This document shows positions 321-4,150 of a stretch of 57,142 nt of DNA, piece after piece (the stretch's first letter is position 1; each line of letters begins with the position of its first letter). Under the pieces are notes generated by a model. It ran no database searches. It was not told the DNA's origin and worked only from the letters and a program-made list of their open reading frames with translations. The stretch is from Oscillatoria sp. FACHB-1407 (GTDB lineage: Bacteria; Cyanobacteriota; Cyanobacteriia; Elainellales; Elainellaceae), in the NCBI RefSeq assembly GCF_014697545.1, contig NZ_JACJSA010000031.1, positions 1-57,142 of the forward strand, in the 5' to 3' direction. The position numbers were made by a program, and so were the translations under genes.

Positions 321-394
321 GTGGACATGGTGTAGTGGTAGCATGTGAGGCTTCCAACCTCTTGGTGTGGGTTCGAGTCCCACTGTCCATACCA
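321..394 (+). tRNA. tRNA-Gly(TCC)
   Basis: The acceptor GTGGACA pairs with TGTCCAT with one G-T wobble. The D-arm holds AGTGGTA, the anticodon loop is CTTCCAA (anticodon TCC), and the T-arm is GTGGG-TTCGAGT-CCCAC. The discriminator A and CCA are encoded. The outermost anticodon-stem pair is a T-T mismatch. First complete tRNA of the cluster. Confidence 0.85.
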
Positions 395-397
395 AAC

Positions 398-469
398 GCG
401 ATCGTGATGTAGCGGCGAGCATCTGAGTGCGCCACACTCAGCGCATGGGTTCGAGTCCCATCGCGCTGC
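398..469 (+). pseudogene. Degenerate tRNA-Gly(GCC)-like
   Basis: It has a good T-arm (ATGGG-TTCGAGT-CCCAT), a D-arm-like AGCGGCGA loop and an anticodon stem TGAGT/ACTCA around loop GCGCCAC, which would place GCC as anticodon. Base 33 is C instead of the near-invariant T, only about three of seven acceptor pairs form, and no CCA is encoded. Probably a decaying or non-canonical glycine tRNA. Confidence 0.5.
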
Positions 470-500
470 TTCGCAGATACCCGCAAGGGGTCGCTCTCGT

Positions 501-575
501 AGTCCTGTAGCTCAACGGTGGAGCATCTGTCTTACAAACAGAGGGTTGCAGGTTCAAATCCTGTCAGGACTACCA
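501..575 (+). tRNA. tRNA-Val(TAC)
   Basis: The cloverleaf is complete. Acceptor AGTCCTG pairs perfectly with CAGGACT, the D-stem is GCTC/GAGC, the anticodon loop CTTACAA carries TAC, and the T-arm is GCAGG-TTCAAAT-CCTGT. ACCA is encoded. This is the best preserved tRNA of the cluster. Confidence 0.93.
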
Positions 576-579
576 ATTC

Positions 580-656
580 AAGGACTGAGTAACGAGGACT
601 GAGGACTGGGAAAAAGCTGTACTCAGCACTTAGTCCTCAGCACTCAGCACTCACTT
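580..656 (+). repeat. Short tandemly repeated sequence (ACTGAGG / CTCAGCA type)
   Basis: The spacer between tRNA-Val and tRNA-Ala is made of imperfect GGACTGA units followed by complementary ACTCAGC / TCAGTCC-like units, so it can also fold back on itself. This heptamer-based low-complexity style is typical of dispersed cyanobacterial repeats. Confidence 0.7.
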
Positions 657-733
657 GGGTCTGTAGCTTAACTGGGAAAGCGTCTGCCTTGCAAGCAGAA
701 AGATGTCGGTTCAAATCCGACCAGAATCCACCA
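657..733 (+). tRNA. tRNA-Ala(TGC) with one extra base in the acceptor stem
   Basis: Anticodon loop CTTGCAA gives TGC. T-arm GTCGG-TTCAAAT-CCGAC, and CCA is encoded. The acceptor 5' strand GGGTCTG would pair perfectly with CAGATCC, including the G3-T70 pair that marks alanine tRNAs, but the gene reads CAGAATCC, one A too many. The bulge may impair function. The following interrupted tRNA-like gene has the same acceptor strand without the extra A, suggesting common descent. Confidence 0.8.
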
Positions 734-738
734 AACCT

Positions 739-904
739 GGGTCTGTAGCTCTAGTGGCAGAGCACCTAAACCACCTTGTACCCTAATCAGCAAAGCTTAC
801 ATACTAACTTCCTGTTAAGAAGCAAAAAACTGCTTTGTGAACTTGTACGAGGGATGAGTGCAATTCTCATCGGGAGGTGATCGGTTCGATTCCGATCAGA
901 TCCA
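739..904 (+). other. tRNA-like gene interrupted by a Y-type hairpin
   Basis: The 5' part has acceptor GGGTCTG and D-arm GCTC-TAGTGGCA-GAGC. The 3' part has T-arm ATCGG-TTCGATT-CCGAT and acceptor CAGATCC, a perfect seven-pair match to the 5' strand. Between them, where the anticodon arm belongs, lies hairpin RNA unit A (775-851) followed by a second small hairpin, GATGAG-TGCAATT-CTCATC. ACCT (764-767) can pair with AGGT (875-878) as a short anticodon-stem-like helix. No CCA is encoded. There are no group I or group II intron features. Either a tRNA was invaded, or this is a composite tRNA/Y-like RNA. Confidence 0.65.
775..851 (+). ncRNA. Y RNA-like unit A (short form)
   Basis: The outer helix CTTGTAC (775-781) pairs with GTACGAG (845-851), and the inner helix GCAAAGC (790-796) pairs with GCTTTGT (832-838). 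It shares 5' strand motif GTACCC-TAAT and the AAGCTTACATACT block (793-805) with units B-D, and 3' strand motif AACTTGTACG. The tRNA-like module is replaced by a small CTTC/GAAG hairpin. The whole unit sits inside the tRNA-like gene 739-904. Ro binding is inferred from the neighbouring rsr gene. Confidence 0.7.
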
Positions 905-906
905 CT

Positions 907-983
907 GTGACTGAACCCGAAGTGGTGGAGGGGCTGGTCTGTGACACCAGTGTTAGCGAGTTCGACTCTCGTCAGTCACCCCA
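907..983 (+). tRNA. tRNA-His(GTG)
   Basis: Acceptor GTGACTG pairs with CAGTCAC. The anticodon arm is CTGGT-CTGTGAC-ACCAG (GTG) and the T-arm GCGAG-TTCGACT-CTCGT. C73 is followed by an encoded CCA. The base before G1 is T, so the extra 5' G expected of a bacterial tRNA-His is not in its usual place. It starts three bases after the interrupted tRNA-like gene. Confidence 0.85.
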
Positions 984-986
984 AAT

Positions 987-1070
987 GGAAACTGCGGCTG
1001 AAGGTCAGCAACCTGCCTCGAAAACAGGCGTGCAGTTCATGCTGTAGAGGTTCGATTCCTCCAGTTTCCG
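987..1070 (+). tRNA. tRNA-Ser(CGA)
   Basis: Class II tRNA. Acceptor GGAAACT pairs with AGTTTCC, the anticodon loop CTCGAAA gives CGA, there is a long variable arm, and the T-loop is TTCGATT. Discriminator G, no encoded CCA. The last anticodon-stem pair and the first T-stem pair are C-A or A-C mismatches, so it is somewhat degenerate. Confidence 0.8.
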
Positions 1071-1075
1071 CTGAT

Positions 1076-1162
1076 GGAAGGTGCGGCTGTGTGGACGGCA
1101 ACTGGCTTGGAAGCCCAGAGGATAGTTTTAATGCTATCGAGGTTCGACTCCTCCTCCTTCCG
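1076..1162 (+). tRNA. tRNA-Ser(GGA)
   Basis: Class II tRNA. Acceptor GGAAGG pairs with CCTTCC, anticodon loop TTGGAAG gives GGA, and a long variable arm has stem GATAG/CTATC. T-arm GAGG-TTCGACT-CCTC. Discriminator G, no encoded CCA. Position 7-66 is a T-T mismatch. Its body resembles the preceding serine tRNA, suggesting local duplication. Confidence 0.8.
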
Positions 1163-1181
1163 CTGTTTTATCGATAAGTAA

Positions 1182-1394
<213 letters not shown>

Positions 1395-1401
1395 TTATTC
1401 A

Positions 1402-1542
1402 ATTCCGCACCCTGACTTGAAAAGCTTACATACTTAGGGATCAGAAGGTTGCAGGTGCGATTCCTGCTTACTCCGATTGGGGTGATAGCTCAATGAGTAG
1501 AGCATCTGAATGTATTAACCGCTTTTCTAACTTGTGTGGAAT
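1402..1542 (+). ncRNA. Y RNA-like unit B with circularly permuted tRNA-like module
   Basis: The outer helix ATTCCGCAC (1402-1410) pairs with GTGTGGAAT (1534-1542), nine pairs. Next is an internal loop with CCTGACTT opposite TAACTT, then GAAAAGC (1419-1425) with GCTTTTC (1521-1527) and ATAC with GTAT. The enclosed module is a tRNA in permuted order: anticodon-stem strand TCAGA (1441-1445), T-arm GCAGG-TGCGATT-CCTGC, acceptor TTACTCC closed through loop GATT onto GGGGTGA, D-arm GCTC/GAGC, then TCTGA (1505-1509) closing the anticodon stem. This matches the published architecture of bacterial YrlA RNAs, where a tRNA mimic caps the Ro-binding stem. It lies 477 bases upstream of rsr. Confidence 0.85.
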
Positions 1543-1560: not shown

Positions 1561-1680
<120 letters not shown>

Positions 1681-1794: not shown

Positions 1795-1812
1795 AAAATT
1801 TGGCAGTTGTTG

Positions 1813-3452
<1,640 letters not shown>

Positions 3453-3541: not shown

Positions 3542-3829
3542 ATGGGTGCTGAGGTTGAACAGAAACAGAATCGCGAGGCTGTGTTTCAGCCTGAGTTTAT
3601 TGAAGATCTGGAATATTGGGTTGAAACCGATCGCAAGATGGCACTCCGCATTATCAAGTTGGTTAAAGAAATTCTCCGCGAACCTTTTGAAGGAACTGGC
3701 AAGCCAGAGCCTCTGAAATACGATTTAGCTGGATGCTGGTCACGTCGCTTGAATAAAGAACACCGAATTGTTTATAGGGTCAGCGATCGCCAGATTGATT
3801 TTCTGCAAGCACGGTATCACTACGAGTAA
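3542..3829 (+). CDS. yoeB: Txe/YoeB family toxin
   Basis: This 95-residue ribosome-dependent mRNA endonuclease has the full YoeB signature. PFEGTGKPEPLK holds the catalytic Glu, SRRLNKEHRIVY the Arg, and the C-terminal ARYHYE the His-Tyr pair. The family is normally about 84-90 residues, so the start may lie a few codons further in; no clear ribosome-binding site marks ATG 3542. It precedes its antitoxin by 21 bases, the reverse of the usual yefM-yoeB order. It appears functional. Confidence 0.9.
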   Translation: MGAEVEQKQNREAVFQPEFIEDLEYWVETDRKMALRIIKLVKEILREPFEGTGKPEPLKYDLAGCWSRRLNKEHRIVYRVSDRQIDFLQARYHYE

Positions 3830-3850
3830 CACAATTGAGAGGTTAAAACT

Positions 3851-4150
3851 ATGTCAACCCAAATTTCTTATGTTGATGCTCAAGTCAATCTCGGTGAATT
3901 GTGCGATCGCGTTGTTGAGACAGGTGAAGCCGTGATCATCACTCGCCCTGATGGTAAAAATGTTGCTCTAGTTTCTGAAGCTGAATTGTCGAGTTTGCTG
4001 GAAACGCTTTATTTGTTGCGATCGCCTGCGAATGCATCTCGTTTAGCCACAGCGTTAGAGCGATCGAAATCAGGTGAAGTACAACCGCAAGCGATCAATG
4101 AGTTGTATCAGAGATTTGGGCTTGAAGAGAAAGATACTAACGATAATTAG
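3851..4150 (+). CDS. yefM: Phd/YefM family antitoxin
   Basis: This encodes 99 residues with an N-terminal Phd/YefM fold. ISYVDAQVNLGELCDRVV is the dimerising DNA-binding half, and VIITRPDGKNVALVSEAEL the conserved turn. An acidic, flexible C-terminal tail (FGLEEKDTNDN) would wrap the toxin. It is preceded by GAGAGG. It should neutralise the YoeB encoded upstream and autoregulate the pair. Its tail is longer than in E. coli YefM. Confidence 0.9.
   Translation: MSTQISYVDAQVNLGELCDRVVETGEAVIITRPDGKNVALVSEAELSSLLETLYLLRSPANASRLATALERSKSGEVQPQAINELYQRFGLEEKDTNDN

What the first reader, a model, noticed from the sequence alone, without database searches (positions are those of the whole stretch)
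1402..1542. Circularly permuted tRNA-like module capping unit B
The tRNA 3' half (anticodon strand, T-arm, acceptor strand TTACTCC) comes before the 5' half (GGGGTGA acceptor, D-arm, TCTGA). The acceptor stem is closed by the tetraloop GATT, with seven of seven pairs. The anticodon stem opens into the Y stem. This matches the published idea that YrlA RNAs mimic tRNA. Alternatively, if processed at the acceptor loop, it could be a source of a permuted tRNA as known in some algae and archaea.
Basis: partly seen in the sequence, partly recalled or inferred. Interest (0 to 1): 0.85.

Follow-up and report, generated by a model that had tools for sequence, protein, structure and literature searches.

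The report
Inside-out tRNA mimic on Y RNA
Next to a gene for a distant relative of the human Ro60 protein, this cyanobacterium carries a small non-coding RNA whose top is a tRNA with its two halves swapped and its end sealed; relatives carry whole sets of such stems displaying pieces of tRNAs and of ribosomal RNA, perhaps as baits for agents that attack translation.

Summary
At 1402-1542 a Y-RNA-like stem opens into a tRNA module in the order 3' half, GATT cap, 5' half, with 7 of 7 acceptor pairs (two G-T). It is not chance: 0 of 20,000 shuffles pass. Of 311 homologous stems in 80 loci plus the window, 53 have T-arm before D-arm; 49 of these pair 7/7 at the acceptor, which was not used to select them. 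The gene about 480 nt downstream folds like Ro60 (Z 23.6, 15% identity).

The permuted order is that of Rfam YrlA, which unit B matches below cut-off (33.1 of 69 bits): a known kind of architecture. "Source of a permuted tRNA" is not supported: CCA follows the acceptor in 0 of 53, and linkers and a Y stem replace the anticodon loop.

What is new lies around it: arrays of such stems beside the divergent Ro60 gene, carrying ordinary-order tRNAs, permuted tRNAs, a 23S GTPase-centre/sarcin-ricin module (32 elements) and a helix 69-71 module (21), also in phage records. Best guess: Ro60-bound baits for agents that attack translation RNAs; bait function about 0.4.

The parts
1402..1410 (+). P1, 5' strand of basal Y stem (ATTCCGCAC)
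   Evidence: 100% of cells paired in 26 aligned elements, 6 of 9 pairs with double changes (elements were found by a scan that asked for at least 5 P1 pairs)
1411..1425 (+). 5' side of internal loop (CCTGACTT; with the last C of P1 the conserved CCCTRAC) and P2 5' strand (GAAAAGC)
   Evidence: conserved in the family; P2 93.4% paired
1426..1440 (+). TTACATACT consensus motif of the family and linker to the tRNA module
   Evidence: repeat D2 has four copies in the window; found in relatives
1441..1467 (+). tRNA 3' half: anticodon-stem 3' strand 1441-1445, variable region, T-arm 1451-1467 (loop TGCGATT: G at position 55)
1468..1485 (+). acceptor stem in permuted order: TTACTCC, cap GATT 1475-1478, GGGGTGA
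   Evidence: independent test; all 7 pairs show double changes, whose rows from the 80 loci had been picked with at least 6/7 acceptor pairs
1486..1509 (+). tRNA 5' half: positions 8-9, D-arm 1488-1503 (loop AATGAGTA), anticodon-stem 5' strand 1505-1509
1510..1542 (+). 3' linker, P2 3' strand 1521-1527, TAACTT 1528-1533, P1 3' strand 1534-1542
739..904 (+). unit A: ordinary-order tRNA whose anticodon loop holds a Y stem (774-852)
   Evidence: Y stem by scan; tRNA halves read by eye; the energy fold does not form its acceptor and anticodon stems
1561..1680 (+). unit C: Y stem fused to the acceptor end of an ordinary-order tRNA-Lys(UUU)-like module (ARAGORN 1584-1656)
   Evidence: fold energy weak, z -1.64
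1809..1960 (+). unit D: Y stem with hairpins and no tRNA match, last element before the Ro60-like gene
2019..3452 (+). divergent Ro60-like protein (HEAT-like helices plus vWA, 477 aa)
   Evidence: AlphaFold model pLDDT 87.6; Ro60 1yvp Z 23.6, rmsd 4.0 over 441 residues
1194..1394 (+). small conserved ORF (66 aa, MVHIRFEG...RPEAVYG)
   Evidence: tblastn match in 66 of 80 loci; fold search inconclusive
321..1163 (+). ordinary tRNA genes of the array (321, 501, 657, 907, 1076), cut off at the contig start
   Evidence: 907 by Rfam only, 1076 by ARAGORN only

Best explanation
Unit B encodes a Y-RNA-like non-coding RNA. Its basal stem (P1, the loop CCCTRAC / AACTT, P2, and TTACATACT) is the handle held by the divergent Ro60 protein encoded just downstream (inferred, about 0.8). 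Its top is a tRNA body (T-arm, D-arm, elbow, acceptor stem) grafted onto the handle through its own anticodon arm, so its natural ends are sealed by GATT and it can be neither charged nor used in translation (the architecture is shown from sequence and covariation, about 0.95; the loss of charging is inferred). It is one of a set of such handles, each holding a piece of the translation machinery's RNA: a tRNA held by the acceptor end with the anticodon free, a permuted tRNA held by the anticodon end with elbow and acceptor free, or, in relatives, pieces of 23S rRNA. The most likely purpose is bait: the Ro60 particles soak up or sense proteins that attack tRNAs and the ribosome's functional centres, while the neighbouring ordinary tRNA genes resupply tRNAs (inferred, about 0.4).
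For: Structure: 53 of 311 inserts have T-arm before D-arm; selected without using the acceptor, they pair 7/7 in 49; 26 distinct acceptor pairs give 176 of 182 paired cells against at most 135 in 10,000 shuffles. In 26 aligned elements 95.7% of cells pair and no shuffle of 500 reaches that; slid controls reach 36-46% (see the Against line on how these rows were picked). Elbow: of 164 modules examined, T55 goes with G18 in 135 and G55 with A18 in 24, plus the window by eye. Partner: Ro60 fold; 311 stems in 79 of 80 loci plus the window, 0 on the opposite strand by the same scan; across 292 genomes, 11 of the 18 with the protein and 5 of the 274 without it match the stem pattern, and the reversed control pattern hits 4. 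Bait: 53 of 311 inserts match 23S rRNA by BLAST, 32 at the GTPase centre and 21 at helix 69-71; all 32 of the former, and no other insert, hold the sarcin-ricin sequence AGTACGAGAGG; an Rfam LSU model hits L001 at E 1.1e-13, just under its cut-off, and L014 above it. Anticodons in ordinary-order modules vary widely. Phage-type records carry the same pair of protein and stems. A different cyanobacterial tRNA array is induced by antibiotics that hit translation (PMC10272220, passages), and tRNA-like YrlA was proposed as a competitive inhibitor of a tRNA nuclease (PMC7790460, passages).
Against: No expression, binding or cleavage data exist here. Rfam YrlA is matched below its cut-off. The 20 rows of the 26-row alignment that come from the 80 loci were hand-picked from a list that required at least 6/7 acceptor and 4/5 T-stem pairs, so the paired percentages lean towards the structure; one search is the unbiased test. 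In one search one element (L080:4183) pairs only 4/7 and three pair 6/7; two of the 53 entries are two elements run together by the scan (L007:3167, L053:3809). RNAalifold does not predict the anticodon stem; it is the weakest helix (80.2%) and P2 is 93.4%. The anticodon variability is matched by the variable loop, so drift is possible. The own genome shows no rRNA-type element by the pattern used. 7 of 18 genomes with the protein lack the strict stem pattern. In YrlA the tRNA-like part is modified by tRNA enzymes, which fits a recruiter as well as a bait.
Confidence: 0.6

Rival explanations
1. Recruiter, as proposed for known YrlA and RYPER: the tRNA-like top docks a tRNA-binding or RNA-degrading enzyme (PNPase, modification or processing enzymes) onto Ro60 for quality control of RNA, and is not a bait.
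For: YrlA is a DusA and TruB substrate and the Y RNA tethers PNPase to Rsr in published work (PMC8394870, passages; PMC7790460, passages). Architecture and Ro60 fold agree.
Against: The 23S modules are not expected to dock tRNA enzymes; unit B and its closest homologues have G at position 55, so the TruB target base is absent; one locus can hold up to seven elements of several kinds (L051).
Confidence: 0.33
2. Source of a working tRNA through permuted-gene processing, as in red algae and some archaea.
For: The order of halves is the same; intervening sequences of 1 to 74 bp are known in such genes (PMC3978253, passages), so a 4-nt cap alone does not exclude it.
Against: That route is described as starting at a BHB motif cut by the tRNA-splicing machinery; here linkers and a Y stem stand in place of the anticodon loop, and the same stem carries non-tRNA cargo in other elements; CCA follows the acceptor in 0 of 53; caps differ in length and sequence; G55 replaces U55 in unit B.
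Confidence: 0.03
3. Chance fusion or decayed pieces of neighbouring tRNAs in an array.
For: Adjacent ordinary tRNAs can fake the T-then-D order (tiles 501-701); a truncated half-copy of unit B lies in another array of the genome.
Against: Acceptor co-change in elements from records of several phyla, not selected on the acceptor; 0 of 20,000 shuffles; Y arms on both sides in homologues.
Confidence: 0.01
4. The stems are processing punctuation or scaffolds that help mature the polycistronic tRNA array, with no trans-acting role.
For: Unit A sits inside a tRNA anticodon arm and the elements lie among tRNA genes.
Against: Elements also lie downstream of the Ro60-like gene (32 of GAC/SRL type); rRNA-like modules do not need tRNA maturation.
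Confidence: 0.06
5. A two-piece (permuted) tmRNA-like RNA.
For: Cyanobacterial two-piece tmRNA also has a permuted order (recalled).
Against: No tmRNA hit in 1170-2020 at E up to 5; the genome has a separate tmRNA at C2:115264-115646, 125 bits; no CCA end.
Confidence: 0.01

Closest known systems
YrlA / bacterial Y RNAs with a tRNA-like domain (Rfam RF02553; Salmonella YrlA)
   Same: basal stem plus T-arm, capped acceptor, D-arm in permuted order (model structure line); encoded beside a Ro60-fold protein
   Different: 33.1 bits against a gathering score of 69; 5' internal loop CCCTRAC and motif TTACATACT; G55 with A18 elbow; part of a multi-element array with ordinary tRNAs, acceptor-fused tRNAs and, in relatives, 23S modules; the protein is missed by Pfam TROVE
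Ro60 / Rsr / TROVE proteins (1yvp, 2nvo, phage phiLo 9l5y)
   Same: whole-length fold, Z 23.6, 20.7 and 19.4; Pfam vWA_Ro60 matches 3 of 25 family members, best E 0.0047
   Different: 14-17% identity in the Ro60 rows, no TROVE profile hit; best profile match to a solved TROVE sequence only E 0.049
Circularly permuted tRNA genes of algae and archaea (PMC3978253)
   Different: no anticodon loop or splice junction recognised, no CCA; held on a Y stem
Cyanobacterial tRNA arrays (trn operon of Anabaena 7120, PMC10272220)
   Same: clusters of many tRNA genes, also on plasmids (Kovacikia plasmid pA, 33 ARAGORN calls)
   Different: Y stems and a Ro60-like gene inside the cluster; the word Ro60 occurs 0 times in the main text of that paper

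Membership tests
Rfam YrlA (RF02553) | covariance model score at or above gathering (69 bits) | tested here: not met
   33.1 bits, E 3.2e-5, model 1-114; L053 33.6; L070, L072, L079 (two places) and L080 (one of two permuted elements) 31.3-35.1 bits; permuted elements of L064, L049, L014 not listed at E 0.05
Rfam YrlA (RF02553) | tRNA-like domain in the order T-arm, capped acceptor, D-arm | tested here: met
bacterial Y RNA (functional class) | encoded next to a Ro60 orthologue | tested here: met
   Ro60 fold of the gene at 2019-3452, though no TROVE profile match; fold, not orthology, is what was tested
bacterial Y RNA (functional class) | binds Ro60 through the basal stem | not testable with these tools
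   needs binding assay
bacterial Y RNA (functional class) | tRNA-like domain is a substrate of TruB and Dus enzymes | tested here: inconclusive
   position 55 is G in unit B, so the TruB target base is absent; Dus not testable
permuted tRNA gene | CCA after the acceptor 3' strand, or evidence of a mature tRNA | tested here: inconclusive
   0 of 53 encode CCA there; CCA can be added afterwards, and no RNA data
permuted tRNA gene | intact anticodon arm with splice junction | tested here: not met
   in unit B the anticodon loop is replaced by 15 and 11 nt linkers and a Y stem; no BHB search program was run
tmRNA | match to tmRNA models | tested here: not met
   no hit in 1170-2020; own tmRNA elsewhere
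Pfam TROVE (PF05731), for the protein | profile match over cut-off | tested here: not met
   0 matches in the genome; not among the families listed for the protein nor among the 25 of 26 families shown for 25 members

The most novel reading that the evidence does not exclude
A Ro60-centred bait system: a divergent Ro60 protein holds an array of Y-stem RNAs, each displaying one vulnerable piece of the translation machinery (tRNA anticodon arms with rapidly changing anticodons, sealed permuted tRNA elbow/acceptor bodies, a fused GTPase-centre plus sarcin-ricin module, a helix 69-71 module). It protects cyanobacteria, and the phages that carry it, from tRNA- and rRNA-cleaving toxins and defence nucleases, with the adjoining tRNA array as resupply.
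Probability: 0.4. Interest if true: 0.95.

Novelty: new variant of a known kind. Interest (0 to 1): 0.8.

Why it matters
What the effector ends of bacterial Y RNAs do is, as far as I could read, still open. This family turns that into a testable comparison: one conserved handle, many different translation-RNA cargoes, with acceptor-free and anticodon-free versions of tRNA side by side. If the bait reading holds, it would be a new type of RNA-based defence and counter-defence; if the recruiter reading holds, it would widen the known cargo of Ro60 from tRNA mimics to ribosomal RNA mimics. Either way, the protein is missed by the Pfam TROVE profile, and no YrlA match reached Rfam's gathering score in the window or the loci scanned.

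Tried and rejected
Energy of the single-sequence fold was too weak as evidence (z -2.16), so I used homologues. Looking for the parent tRNA of unit B among 66 tRNAs of the genome gave no clear parent: the top three (Val of the window, Arg, Thr) score 32, 32 and 31; the two halves were aligned separately. The 66-aa ORF: fold search gave only weak rows, best E 0.26. The idea that helix 69-71 modules are also permuted, opened at the helix 69 loop, rests on strong head matches in 6 of 6 elements and short tails that exceed the 95% shuffle level in 2 of 6 (one of them at another place) and the highest shuffle in none; L066 seems to keep the whole helix 69 loop. I report it as a lead only. The 12-nt sarcin-ricin match of L001 alone only ties the best of 500 shuffles; its weight comes from recurring in all 32 inserts that BLAST picks by the GTPase centre. 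Selection on the anticodon: the three anticodon columns (1.66, 1.52, 1.15 bits) are among the most variable, but variable-loop columns reach 1.53 and 1.48, and that group of 39 was picked by a pattern that fixes the stem and restricts the loop flanks, so constancy there is by construction. Tombus_3_III, SNORA7 and similar sub-threshold Rfam rows were taken as chance. The regex read position 18 of the window's D-loop as T; by alignment with homologues (AATCAGTA, AATTAGCA) it is A. Five of the 16 genomes matching the stem pattern have no protein hit; four of those matches lack the AAGCTT context and look like chance, one (G278) lies 288 bases into its contig. Viral scan with the phage protein found nothing; the scan with the alignment found 4, of which L154 showed no stem. 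L079:4736-4839 matches YrlA but is not among my 311 elements, so the scan misses some. Literature: Chen 2014 (RNA), Wang 2018, Sim and Wolin 2018, Boccitto 2019, Sim 2020 and Burroughs and Aravind 2016 are not held; what I say of them is recalled or second-hand. My ten searches listed, by title and start of abstract, no paper on rRNA-mimicking Y RNAs, but the main papers are outside that library and the lists were capped.

Full report
What was checked. The window is the first 57,142 bases of contig C31 of an 8.1-Mb genome whose closest relatives by the neighbouring protein, in the collection searched, are cyanobacteria. It begins inside a tRNA array: ARAGORN finds five tRNAs and Rfam five, six places in all, all before 1,660. 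Two of its seven acceptor pairs are G-T.

More than chance. The fold energy alone is weak, and the energy fold does not form the anticodon stem. A detector asking for T-arm, at least 6 of 7 acceptor pairs and D-arm in permuted order passes 0 of 20,000 dinucleotide shuffles. It does fire at tiles 501-701 of the window, where two ordinary tRNAs stand side by side, so order alone is not proof. The proof is comparative.

A family of stems. Four stems in the window share CCCTRAC...GCTTACATACT (with small departures) on the 5' side and GCTT...AACTTG or GACTTG on the 3' side. A scan that asks for these motifs plus at least 5 P1 and 4 P2 pairs gave 315 hits on the gene strand and 0 on the other strand in 80 loci plus the window; 311 remain after overlap removal, in 79 of 80 loci and the window (the one without is L059). 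The 80 loci are the best of 125 from one protein search and many are Nostoc, so counts are not independent. By content: ordinary-order tRNA 115, permuted tRNA 60, short loop 55, GTPase-centre/sarcin-ricin 32, helix 69-71 14, other 35. By BLAST to the genome's own 23S rRNA, which is the more sensitive test, 53 of 311 match: 32 at the GTPase centre and 21 at helix 69-71. The 32 picked by the GTPase centre are exactly the 32 that hold AGTACGAGAGG. One entry (L007:3167-3499) is a helix 69-71 element and a permuted one run together, and is counted in both tests.

Permutation test. Selecting inserts with a T-arm followed by a D-arm, without looking at the acceptor, gives 53 of 311. Acceptor pairs: 7/7 in 49, 6/7 in 3, 4/7 in 1. 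The 26 distinct acceptor pairs have 176 of 182 cells paired; 10,000 reshufflings of partners reach at most 135. The set includes metagenome records titled Blastocatellia, Armatimonadetes, Deltaproteobacteria, Acidobacteriota and Sandaracinus. RNAalifold, unconstrained, returns P1, P2, T-arm, permuted acceptor and most of the D-arm, not the anticodon stem, with 21 of 31 pairs showing a double change. Counting the full structure gives 95.7% paired cells and 27 of 37 pairs with double changes; none of 500 shuffles reaches either, and slid structures pair 36-46%. The anticodon stem is the weakest helix (80.2%) and P2 has unpaired cells (93.4%). Because of how the rows were picked, one search carries the weight for the acceptor.

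Elbow. Of 164 modules examined, T at position 55 comes with G at 18 in 135 and G at 55 with A at 18 in 24. One has A18 with T55, three could not be read, and the window was misread by the pattern but is A18/G55 by alignment. This joint change crosses permuted and ordinary-order modules and suggests the tRNA elbow contact is kept. It also removes the U that TruB would modify in unit B.

Partner protein. The 477-aa product of 2019-3452 has no TROVE match, weak vWA matches, and no PDB sequence match at E 0.1; with a family profile the best solved TROVE sequence reaches E 0.049. Its AlphaFold model (pLDDT 87.6, pTM 0.83) has Ro60/TROVE proteins as the top 13 Foldseek rows and the top 10 VIA rows: 1yvp Z 23.6, rmsd 4.0, 441 residues; Rsr 2nvo Z 20.7; phage phiLo Ro60 Z 19.4; the next rows are isolated vWA domains at Z 15.7. 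In 292 genomes drawn from the phylum 18 have the protein and 16 the strict stem pattern, with 4 hit by the reversed control pattern; 11 have both protein and stem pattern.

Relation to YrlA. The Rfam YrlA model has the same T-arm, capped acceptor, D-arm order and covers all of unit B at 33.1 bits, E 3.2e-5, below its gathering score of 69. Matches in L053, L070, L072, L079 and L080 score 31.3-35.1; permuted elements of L064, L049 and L014 were not listed at E 0.05. So unit B works like YrlA in build, but I do not file it as a member. The review PMC8394870 (passages) describes YrlA's likeness to the D, T and acceptor arms and its modification by DusA and TruB.

Not a tRNA source. Published permuted tRNA genes are described as maturing by splicing at a BHB motif to a circle, after which RNase P and tRNase Z remove the intervening sequence (PMC3978253, passages). 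Unit B has no anticodon loop to restore, CCA follows the acceptor in 0 of 53 elements (2 hold CCA elsewhere in the cap), and the stem in place of the anticodon loop is the same as in elements with no tRNA at all. A tmRNA origin is made very unlikely by the separate tmRNA.

Surroundings. Unit A reads as an ordinary-order tRNA with the Y stem in its anticodon loop; unit C is a tRNA-Lys-like cloverleaf whose acceptor end is fused to the Y stem; unit D has other hairpins. So the same handle is attached at two different ends of a tRNA. In Kovacikia minuta plasmid pA a fuller layout is seen: about 32 tRNA genes, a T-arm/acceptor element, units A, B and C, the Ro60-like gene, and downstream a GTPase-centre/sarcin-ricin element. 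That last kind folds in RNAalifold with P1, P2 and the GTPase-centre hairpins in 16 aligned elements of the 32 and hits LSU models in both loci of that kind that were scanned (L001, just under cut-off; L014, above it).

Phages. A 595-kb record labelled uncultured phage has a 48% identical protein and seven stems by the wider scan, one of them a permuted tRNA. Four IMG/VR contigs have the protein, three of them with stems, one permuted. That these are viral is the collections' labelling.

Mechanism. Shown: the architecture and its conservation, and the genetic link to a Ro60-fold protein. Inferred: binding by that protein (about 0.8). Inferred and open: function. I favour bait or sensor (about 0.4), because the cargoes have in common only that they are exposed working parts of tRNA and 23S rRNA, several of which are, from memory, targets of bacterial toxins, and because phage records carry the set. 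The chief rival (0.33) is recruitment of RNA enzymes to Ro60 as in RYPER. PMC7790460 (passages) raises a competitive-inhibitor role for the tRNA-like part of YrlA.

Novelty. The permuted tRNA-like module is a known kind. The divergent Ro60, the array, the opposite attachment of ordinary and permuted tRNAs, the A18-G55 elbow and the 23S modules did not appear in the titles and abstract starts that my ten searches listed; the main Y RNA papers were not readable here, so this is not a claim that none of it is in print.

Noticed in passing
L001:9272-9488, L152:9194-9410 and others (32 elements): Y-stem RNAs carrying the sarcin-ricin sequence AGTACGAGAGG together with a 23S GTPase-associated-centre module, downstream of the Ro60-like gene.
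   Followed up: partly
L053:3133-3318, L051:1053-1243, L009:2902-3081 and others (21 by BLAST): Y-stem RNAs carrying the 23S helix 69-71 region; the order suggests opening at the helix 69 loop, but the tail match is short.
   Followed up: partly
ordinary-order tRNA modules of 80 loci: In one group of 39 the anticodon takes 14 different triplets on the same arm; in another group CTA, which would read a stop codon, is common.
   Followed up: partly
164 tRNA modules; unit B 1456-1462 and 1492-1499: Joint change of elbow positions 18 and 55 (G18/T55 or A18/G55) in permuted and ordinary-order modules.
   Followed up: partly
L151 (LR756511.1), L153, L155, L156: Phage-type records with the Ro60-like protein and Y stems, two of them (L151, L156) with permuted tRNA modules.
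   Followed up: partly
window 1194-1394: 66-aa ORF matched in 66 of 80 loci, ending in RPEAVYG; model has two strands, helix, two strands; fold search inconclusive.
   Followed up: partly
window 739-904: Ordinary-order tRNA with a Y stem in its anticodon loop, the reverse of unit B's arrangement; read by eye, not formed by the energy fold.
   Followed up: partly
window 1809-1960: Unit D, last stem before the Ro60-like gene, with hairpins that match no family; 54 of 80 sources with elements have a short-loop element somewhere, often at this place.
   Followed up: no
G000:C13:62095-64917 and 99189-99761: A second tRNA array and, about 35 kb on, a degraded copy of units B and C in the same genome.
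   Followed up: partly
L079:4736-4839: A further YrlA-model match (34.3 bits) that my stem scan did not list.
   Followed up: no
window 3542-4150: YoeB-like toxin and Phd/YefM antitoxin genes beside the Ro60-like gene.
   Followed up: no
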